Shown: positions 3,116 through 33,684 of the stretch, piece by piece
Layout: each line of letters opens with the position of its first letter
How positions within the stretch are numbered: position 1 is the stretch's first letter
NCBI RefSeq assembly: GCF_964355755.1
Contig: NC_092672.1
Span: forward strand, 5,332,001-5,396,000
Reading direction: 5' to 3'
From: Antedon mediterranea
Taxonomy: Eukaryota; Echinodermata; Crinoidea; Comatulida; Antedonidae
DNA length: 64,000 bases
Notes under the pieces: generated by a model
What the model saw: only the letters and a program-made list of their open reading frames with translations
Databases searched by the model: none
Told to the model about the DNA's origin: nothing
Position numbers and translations under genes: made by a program

Positions 3116-3259
3116 TCAATATGTTCCAATTCCCATCAACCACTGTCGGGTATACTTTAAAACCTGGAACATCAACTCAACGAATTCACAAAAGCTAATG
3201 ATTGAGATGCCGATGTATAACCCAGCTGTACCGCCAATATCGCTAATTAGATTCTCCAA
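3116..3259 (-). CDS. Channel exon 29: TM2, selectivity filter and C-terminus
   Basis: [19 protein letters not shown], then [13 protein letters not shown]: the SDIGG motif, TM2 with G-I-S at the G/S-x-S filter, and a short cytoplasmic tail ([13 protein letters not shown]) before TGA at 3118-3116. Acceptor TCTTTCTAG. Confidence 0.93.
   Translation of the reverse strand: MENLISDIGGTAGLYIGISIISFCEFVELMFQVLKYTRQWLMGIGTY

Positions 3260-33684: not shown

What the first reader, a model, noticed from the sequence alone, without database searches (positions are those of the whole stretch)
3116..33684. Degenerin/ENaC channel carrying eleven LDLa, EGF, kringle, SRCR and mucin-like modules in its ectodomain
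Hand-joined exons give one in-phase 1,576-codon frame with TM1/HG motif at one end and TM2/GIS filter at the other. About 970 residues of adhesion- and protease-type modules sit between the first palm strand and the finger. Degenerins fused to EGF repeats are known in nematodes, but I know of no described channel combining LDLa arrays, kringle and SRCR with an ENaC core. It could be an ion channel gated by, or tethered to, lipoproteins, proteases or matrix. Function is inference.
Basis: partly seen in the sequence, partly recalled or inferred. Interest (0 to 1): 0.9.

Follow-up and report, generated by a model that had tools for sequence, protein, structure and literature searches.

The report
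Ion channel with mucin-like extracellular arm
This animal gene and two neighbouring copies appear to encode a sodium-channel-type protein of the degenerin/ENaC family into whose outer part a long, beaded arm of receptor, adhesion and mucin-like modules has been spliced, ending in a predicted cutting site, at the same place where human ENaC is switched on by proteases.

Summary
On the minus strand, 28 exons (30,376 to 3,116) splice in phase into a 1,549-residue DEG/ENaC subunit (Pfam ASC E=1.5e-76). A 975-residue insert holds 11 LDLa, one SRCR (4e-30), one kringle (2.7e-11 scanned alone), one EGF-like exon that Pfam does not recognise, and a Ser/Thr/acid-rich mucin-like exon. Two diverged paralogues just outside the window, B (1,586 aa) and A (3,163 aa, partly tentative), repeat the plan: same core, largely colinear LDLa modules, matching core intron phases, a mucin-like exon. 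This argues strongly against two separate genes. [quoted passage not shown] (2) each of the three proteins has exactly one furin-type R-X-[KR]-R motif, always at or near the C-terminal end of the mucin exon; (3) A adds SEA domains; (4) in a second cluster, 7 of 7 genes read (of 11) have LDLa modules and no mucin-like exon. I infer a proteolytically processed, arm-bearing channel gated by cleavage, load or ligand on the arm. Function and expression are untested.

The parts
30014..30376 (-). exon 1: start ATG, cytosolic N-terminus with HG motif (STHGLPH), TM1
   Evidence: Pfam ASC; start Met-Asp also in paralogue B
29274..29415 (-). exon 2: first palm strand beta-1 ([12 protein letters not shown]) and finger alpha-1; ends in phase 1 at the insertion site
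28017..28136 (-). exon 3: LDLa 1, class 1-1
25855..25980 (-). exon 4: LDLa 2, class 1-1
24074..24184 (-). exon 5: LDLa 3, class 1-1
21033..21185 (-). exon 6: LDLa 4, class 1-1
20573..20713 (-). exon 7: LDLa 5, class 1-1
19829..19942 (-). exon 8: LDLa 6, class 1-1
17477..17584 (-). exon 9: LDLa 7, class 1-1 (weak splice score)
17056..17175 (-). exon 10: EGF-like Cys-rich module, class 1-1
   Evidence: no Pfam match
16640..16768 (-). exon 11: LDLa 8, class 1-1 (weak splice score)
15933..16181 (-). exon 12: kringle, class 1-1
   Evidence: Pfam PF00051 2.7e-11 when scanned alone
15551..15716 (-). exon 13: SRCR first half (acceptor chosen by homology)
   Evidence: Pfam PF00530 4.4e-30
14963..15114 (-). 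exon 14: SRCR second half, GC donor
14027..14848 (-). exon 15: Ser/Thr/Asp/Glu-rich mucin-like segment, 273 aa, one Cys
14055..14066 (-). RKRR furin-type motif, residues 993-996, beginning 13 aa from the C end of the mucin exon (coordinates computed from residue number)
10009..10143 (-). exon 16: LDLa 9, class 1-1
9383..9535 (-). exon 17: LDLa 10, class 1-1
8489..8614 (-). exon 18: LDLa 11, class 1-1
7736..8033 (-). exon 19: finger, alpha-2 to beta-2 (PPDW...[18 protein letters not shown]); begins in phase 1
7278..7384 (-). exon 20: YGNCYIFN block
6856..7019 (-). exon 21: [13 protein letters not shown] palm/thumb block
6370..6489 (-). exon 22: KLGGRYGDC block
5870..5978 (-). exon 23: CDKSC...CGC thumb block
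5317..5389 (-). exon 24: DVCRQL...CNCLQQC thumb block
5046..5103 (-). exon 25: [11 protein letters not shown]
4193..4263 (-). exon 26: knuckle/palm link
3697..3772 (-). exon 27: [14 protein letters not shown] palm strand
3116..3259 (-). exon 28: TM2 with GIS filter ([11 protein letters not shown]) and stop

Best explanation
SHOWN BY SEQUENCE: the gene model encodes a DEG/ENaC subunit whose finger, between helices alpha-1 and alpha-2, is interrupted by a modular arm of about 1,000 residues (LDLa array, variable modules, mucin-like segment, one furin-type site, LDLa array). Three tandem paralogues share the plan. INFERRED: furin-type convertases cut once near the C-terminal end of the mucin segment. 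The subunit then consists of two chains, TM1-palm strand-LDLa-mucin arm and LDLa-finger-thumb-TM2, kept together by the palm and by the core disulfide joining the beta-1 cysteine to the YGNC cysteine (pairing recalled from ASIC1). The arm becomes a long, glycosylated, Ca-binding whisker rooted in the gating finger. Cleavage relieves or sets gating, as in ENaC's GRIP domain, and load or ligand on the whisker (mucus, matrix, glycocalyx, or a protease docked on its LDLa/SRCR/kringle/SEA modules) then shifts the finger and opens the Na+-permeable pore.
For: ASC profile over the whole core. Best solved relative is ENaC alpha (6wth_A), followed in the profile search by ASIC1. Alignment blocks stop at core residue 147-151 and resume at 243-251, with the insert at 168/169; [quoted passage not shown] Exactly one R-X-[KR]-R in each of three proteins, beginning 13, 45 and 8 aa from the C end of the mucin exon. 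Shuffled mucin segments contain such a motif in 10 of 3000, 0 of 3000 and 3 of 3000 cases. LDLa modules are largely colinear across paralogues, and nonsynonymous change in LDLa1-3 matches that in the core. One A repeat and one B repeat of the mucin-like exons show far fewer nonsynonymous changes than expected in the proposed frame. A has a SEA domain (5.9e-9) and two GS[IL]IV motifs. LDLa, SRCR and SEA are stem modules of transmembrane proteases, some of which activate ENaC, and gamma-ENaC's polybasic site also reads RKRR (passages). Tethers to matrix are proposed for DEG/ENaC mechanosensing (passages).
Against: No transcript, protein or current was seen. There is only one R-X-[KR]-R per subunit, whereas ENaC alpha and gamma need two cuts to release a short inhibitory tract, so ENaC-like relief by excision is not predicted directly. 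Cleavage is a motif prediction only, and a motif somewhere in the whole protein is not rare in shuffles (9.8%, 8.9%, 5.3%). Kringle and SRCR were found only in the window gene and SEA only in A, so no common ligand follows. The mucin-like exons are only 20-34% Ser+Thr and rich in acid; only a 232-aa A segment (40% S+T, 15% P) looks like a classical mucin. Paralogue A has HA in place of the HG gating motif. In the C8 cluster 7 of 7 genes read lack a mucin-like frame, and the only R-X-[KR]-R in frames of 25 codons or more is in a 30-codon frame of one gene.
Confidence: 0.45

Rival explanations
1. Self-tethered mechanosensor without proteolytic gating: the arm is an extracellular tether fused to the channel, doing in one chain what nematode touch channels are thought to do with separate matrix proteins; the furin cut is only maturation.
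For: Long mucin-like segments of different length in all three paralogues; passages describing matrix tethers for DEG/ENaC shear sensing; SEA domains, which a MUC17 paper says unfold under force (passage), in A.
Against: Does not by itself explain one furin-type motif at a similar place in all three; no anchoring partner known; the C8 cluster genes read lack the long segment.
Confidence: 0.25
2. Ligand-gated receptor channel: the LDLa arrays bind a lipoprotein, hormone, secreted protease or microbial ligand in a Ca-dependent way and pull on the finger.
For: LDLa is the only module kind shared by the three C3 genes and the 7 C8 genes read; the first three and the last LDLa are well conserved between paralogues; SRCR and kringle are binding modules (recalled).
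Against: No ligand evidence; the middle modules differ between paralogues; the mucin-like segment and furin motif are unexplained.
Confidence: 0.2
3. Non-conducting or regulatory subunits used as glycocalyx or adhesion proteins that have lost channel function.
For: Paralogue A carries HA instead of the HG motif; family members may form heteromers (recalled).
Against: 14 core cysteines and the G-x-S filter are kept in all three, and the core evolves under strong amino-acid constraint.
Confidence: 0.07
4. Gene-model artefact: a channel gene with a separate LDLa/SRCR/mucin gene nested in its intron, hand-joined by chance.
For: No RNA; a direct splice from exon 2 to exon 19 would be in frame.
Against: Three tandem genes on both strands with the same order, phases and co-duplicated LDLa modules; a second cluster has LDLa exons at the same place.
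Confidence: 0.03

Closest known systems
Vertebrate epithelial sodium channel ENaC (SCNN1 subunits, PF00858)
   Same: Full channel core; best match among solved structures; a furin-type polybasic site in the loop between finger alpha-1 and alpha-2; gamma-ENaC's site also reads RKRR (passage).
   Different: ENaC's GRIP is a small beta-structured domain with an inhibitory tract (passages); here the loop holds 975-2,549 residues of modules and one polybasic site.
Nematode EGAS channels (EGF plus ASC domain)
   Same: A DEG/ENaC channel carrying extracellular repeat modules (name expansion seen in a passage).
   Different: EGF only by name; position of the modules not seen here; no LDLa, SRCR, kringle, mucin-like exon or furin site known to me (recalled).
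Type II transmembrane serine proteases (TMPRSS2: LDLa+SRCR; matriptase: SEA+CUB+LDLa)
   Same: The same kinds of stem modules (passages); TMPRSS2, TMPRSS4 and matriptase are reported to activate ENaC (passages).
   Different: No serine protease domain in the window protein; shared module kinds do not show descent or docking.
Membrane mucins with SEA domains (MUC1, MUC17)
   Same: Paralogue A joins Ser/Thr/Pro repeats to SEA domains with GS[IL]IV motifs.
   Different: Mucins are single-pass and not channels (recalled); no SEA match in the window protein.
ASIC and FaNaC channels
   Same: Same family, homologous to the core.
   Different: In ASIC1 only about 52 residues separate the two aligned blocks (115 to 167) where the window gene has its insert; FaNaC was not examined there.

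Membership tests
DEG/ENaC (ASC, PF00858) | Profile match over the whole core, N- to C-terminal | tested here: met
   Core without insert: 9.5e-87, profile positions 4-455 of 455
DEG/ENaC (ASC, PF00858) | HG gating motif before TM1 | tested here: met
   HG in window gene and B; HA in A
DEG/ENaC (ASC, PF00858) | 14 conserved ectodomain cysteines (seven disulfides) | tested here: met
   14 invariant core cysteines in three paralogues; pairing not tested
DEG/ENaC (ASC, PF00858) | G-x-S selectivity filter in TM2 | tested here: met
   GIS, GIS, GLS
DEG/ENaC (ASC, PF00858) | Trimeric, amiloride-sensitive cation current | not testable with these tools
   needs expression
ENaC proper with GRIP domain | Insert between finger alpha-1 and alpha-2 | tested here: met
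   alignment limits against the position given; helix limits are by alignment, not by structure
ENaC proper with GRIP domain | Two protease sites bracketing a short inhibitory tract | tested here: not met
   one R-X-[KR]-R per protein; other protease sites not tested
Type II transmembrane serine protease | C-terminal trypsin domain | tested here: not met
   no such Pfam match in the window protein
SEA-type membrane mucin | SEA domain next to Ser/Thr/Pro repeats | tested here: inconclusive
   A: SEA 5.9e-9 above cut-off, one at 0.004 below cut-off, one not matched; no SEA match in the window protein
EGAS (EGF plus ASC) | Recognisable EGF domain | tested here: not met
   EGF-like exon of the window gene has no Pfam match at E 0.5

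The most novel reading that the evidence does not exclude
An invertebrate lineage evolved protease-regulated DEG/ENaC gating independently of vertebrate ENaC: exon shuffling into one phase-1 intron turned the GRIP position into a furin-cut mucin/LDLa whisker carrying the stem modules of channel-activating proteases, so that sensor, tether and protease dock are one polypeptide with the pore, and class 1-1 exons allow many in-frame arm isoforms.
Probability: 0.3. Interest if true: 0.92.

Novelty: new variant of a known kind. Interest (0 to 1): 0.78.

Why it matters
Proteolytic gating in this channel family is described as a property of ENaC, through a domain called unique to it (passage), and matrix tethers for degenerin mechanosensing are proposed but poorly known (passage). 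A gene family that puts a mucin-like tether and a single convertase-type site into the same loop makes both ideas testable in one protein: cut or shorten the arm and measure the current. The same genome holds a graded series: low-complexity insert (C11 pair), LDLa insert without mucin-like exon (C8 cluster, 7 of 11 genes read), LDLa plus mucin-like exon plus furin-type site (C3 triplet). That series suggests how a receptor-like ectodomain can be built into an ion channel by phase-1 exon shuffling.

Tried and rejected
Separate-gene model: rejected on co-duplication and shared phases. Identification of the organism: not achieved; no COX1 match in the assembly, and the ribosomal RNA search did not complete. 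dN/dS values: synonymous change is saturated and my estimator gave pS above 1 in one comparison, so only pN is used. Furin motif by chance: whole-protein shuffles contain one in 9.8%, 8.9% and 5.3% of cases, so presence alone is not rare; presence in the mucin segment is. Mucin repeats as non-coding: A repeat 1 and B repeat 2 look constrained in the proposed frame (in B repeat 2 one other frame is also below expectation but shows three stops); A repeats 2 and 3 and B repeat 1 do not discriminate clearly. Two returned nothing and eight returned listings, several capped (20 of 165, 20 of 283, 10 of 47, 8 of 22, the last on SEA domains only). None of the papers listed was about a DEG/ENaC channel with LDLa, SRCR or kringle modules, judged from titles and abstract starts. 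The term 'deg enac' cannot match the usual spelling with a slash, which weakens those two. The two papers holding both 'degenerin' and 'LDLa' concern proteases.

Model choices that favour my reading: in A, exons 27 and 31 (39,241 and 40,987, C3 minus 5,270,000) were found by eye from homology to the window gene, the junction after exon 11 uses a poor-scoring pair (second in the list), and the SEA region is tentative; in B the acceptor of exon 22 was moved to the phase-matched site nearest the conserved block. Identical core phases in A therefore rest partly on this choice; in B only exon 22 does. No structure prediction or fold search was run, because the spliced protein is not letter for letter in the DNA.

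Full report
What is there. The window is part of a 354-Mb genome in 18 contigs (C3:5,332,001-5,396,000); that it is an animal is my inference from the genes. On the minus strand I rebuilt the gene by anchoring on conserved peptides and choosing phase-matched splice pairs. The result is 28 exons from 30,376 to 3,116 and 1,549 residues without an internal stop. Of 27 introns 26 are GT-AG and one is GC-AG. Pfam finds ASC (1.5e-76), LDLa (10 stretches) and SRCR (4.4e-30) in the joined protein. The kringle is found at 2.7e-11 when its exon is scanned alone, while the EGF-like exon has no match. With the insert taken out, ASC covers profile positions 4-455 of 455 at 9.5e-87. Fourteen core cysteines and a G-x-S filter are invariant in the three paralogues.

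Is it one gene? Two paralogues lie within 47 kb to the left of the window (positions below are C3 minus 5,270,000). B, minus strand, 59,599 to 44,508, has 23 exons and 1,586 aa. A, plus strand, 15,266 to 42,141, has 33 exons and 3,163 aa and is partly tentative. Their cores are 57% and 47% identical to the window gene. All three have TM1, the beta-1/alpha-1 exon, an LDLa array, a long low-cysteine acidic Ser/Thr-rich exon, further LDLa modules, the finger exon and the rest of the core. One search's pattern listed 11, 10 and 14 LDLa in window gene, B and A; A's first module differs from the pattern at one place and escaped it, and is counted by eye, making 15. Reciprocal best matching gives nine pairs between window gene and B, all in order (window 1, 2, 3, 4, 5, 7, 9, 10, 11). 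With A it gives seven pairs, six in order (window 2, 3, 5, 7, 9, 11), of which window 7 pairs across the mucin-like exon; window 1 pairs out of order, but A's own first module was missing from that set, and the window's first LDLa exon matched A's first best among A's modules (5e-15). Core exon phases from the end of the insert on are the same in all three (1, 2, 1, 0, 0, 1, 2, 0, 2, 0), with the reservation that two A exons and one B acceptor were placed by homology. Nonsynonymous difference in LDLa1-3 (pN 0.24-0.31) is like that in finger-to-TM2 (0.25-0.33), while synonymous sites are saturated. Modules and core have therefore been duplicated and kept together.

Where the insert sits. In alignments to solved channels the conserved blocks end at core residue 147-151 and resume at 243-251. 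The insert is at 168/169, that is, after alpha-1 and before the tryptophan-bearing alpha-2 segment (PPDW) of the finger. [quoted passage not shown] Equating PPDW with ENaC's alpha-2 tryptophan is my inference. The insert is 975, 1,007 and 2,549 residues long in window gene, B and A. Exons 3-12 and 15-18 of the window gene are each class 1-1, and the SRCR pair is 1-1 together. They stand in one phase-1 intron between exon 2 and exon 19, the usual mark of exon shuffling (recalled). It follows that skipping any module, or the whole block, keeps the frame.

A furin-type site at a similar place. Each of the three proteins contains exactly one R-X-[KR]-R: RKRR at 993, RRRR at 1,004 and RKKR at 2,399. 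They begin 13, 45 and 8 residues before the C end of the mucin-like segment, in segments that hold only 8, 5 and 19 K+R residues. Shuffling these segments gives any such motif in 10, 0 and 3 of 3,000 trials, and within the last 60 residues in 1, 0 and 0 of 3,000. A motif somewhere in the whole protein is less rare (9.8%, 8.9%, 5.3% of 1,500 shuffles each). Gamma-ENaC's polybasic site reads RKRR as well (PMC9163703, passages). Cleavage itself is not shown.

Other modules. A has a SEA domain (5.9e-9), a weaker one (0.004, below Pfam's cut-off) and a third recognised only by eye; the first and the third carry a GS[IL]IV sequence like the SEA self-cleavage motif (motif recalled). A MUC17 paper says SEA domains are cut during folding and unfold under force (PMC6705488, passages). 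A also holds a 232-residue segment with 40% Ser+Thr and 15% Pro, and a 1,314-residue repeat exon with 20% Ser+Thr. In A repeat 1 the ratio of nonsynonymous to synonymous changes is 1.04 against 3.67 expected, and in B repeat 2 it is 0.88 against 3.04, in the proposed frame. Three other repeat sets did not discriminate clearly. LDLa with SRCR is the stem of TMPRSS2 and SEA with CUB and LDLa that of matriptase (PMC8199346, passages), proteases reported to activate ENaC. That the channel carries the modules of such activators is an attractive but untested reading.

Relatives in the same genome. A search with the finger exon found 16 places: three on C3, eleven on C8 and two on C11. All 7 have LDLa patterns (3 or 4 each) between the TM1 and finger exons and no Ser/Thr-rich frame of 60 codons or more; one R-X-[KR]-R occurs in a 30-codon frame of one gene. 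In the C11 pair, TM1 to finger is a single open frame with a Ser- or Gly-rich low-complexity stretch at the same site and no LDLa seen. A FastTree of up to five exons from 12 of these genes (some rows partial) separates the groups, with supports 0.96 (C3), 0.99 (C8) and 1.00 (C11). The site thus looks like a repeated point of growth.

How it may work. Best reading (0.45): a cleaved, arm-bearing channel in which convertase processing and then load or ligand on the arm act on the finger. Against it stand the lack of any expression or current data, one site instead of ENaC's two, and module sets that differ between paralogues. Rivals are a plain mechanical tether, a ligand-gated receptor channel, a non-conducting surface protein (A has HA for HG), and a model artefact (now unlikely).

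Known or new. It meets every DEG/ENaC sequence feature tested (A departs at HG). It is not ENaC proper (second protease site not met), not a TTSP (no protease domain) and not shown to be an EGAS-type channel (no recognised EGF). Ten searches of the held paper library listed no such channel; listings were capped, subscription papers and proteome databases were not searched, so absence from print is not established. I rate it a new variant of a known kind.

Noticed in passing
G000:C8:4,321,598-4,450,000: Tandem cluster with 11 finger-exon matches of LDLa-bearing DEG/ENaC genes (7 read); several copies are nearly identical, so recent duplication or an assembly duplicate is possible.
   Followed up: partly
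L035 (G000:C11:1,332,501-1,342,500): Two divergently placed DEG/ENaC genes with TM1 to finger in one open frame and a Ser- or Gly-rich low-complexity insert at the site where the C3 genes carry modules.
   Followed up: partly
G000:C3 paralogue A, N-terminus: The HG motif before TM1 is HA in paralogue A, a change at a gating-critical place (recalled), suggesting an altered or regulatory subunit.
   Followed up: no
window 10924-13089, minus: 721-aa open frame with gag-like and aspartic-protease-like sequence of an LTR element (named from recall) inside intron 15 of the gene; only observed.
   Followed up: no
window 47721-48287 (-) and 48276-49175 (+): Two copies of a GIY-YIG-type frame (Penelope-like, from recall) in inverted arrangement.
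   Followed up: no
window 50942-52456 and 62526-62993: Exons resembling an ERCC6-like SNF2 helicase (+) and NIF3-like protein 1 (-), named from recall; ordinary neighbours.
   Followed up: no
G000:C5:26,050,871-26,482,207: Another group of DEG/ENaC genes: eleven places whose ASC match runs from about position 9-22 to 229-233 in one exon, without a sign of a large insert.
   Followed up: no
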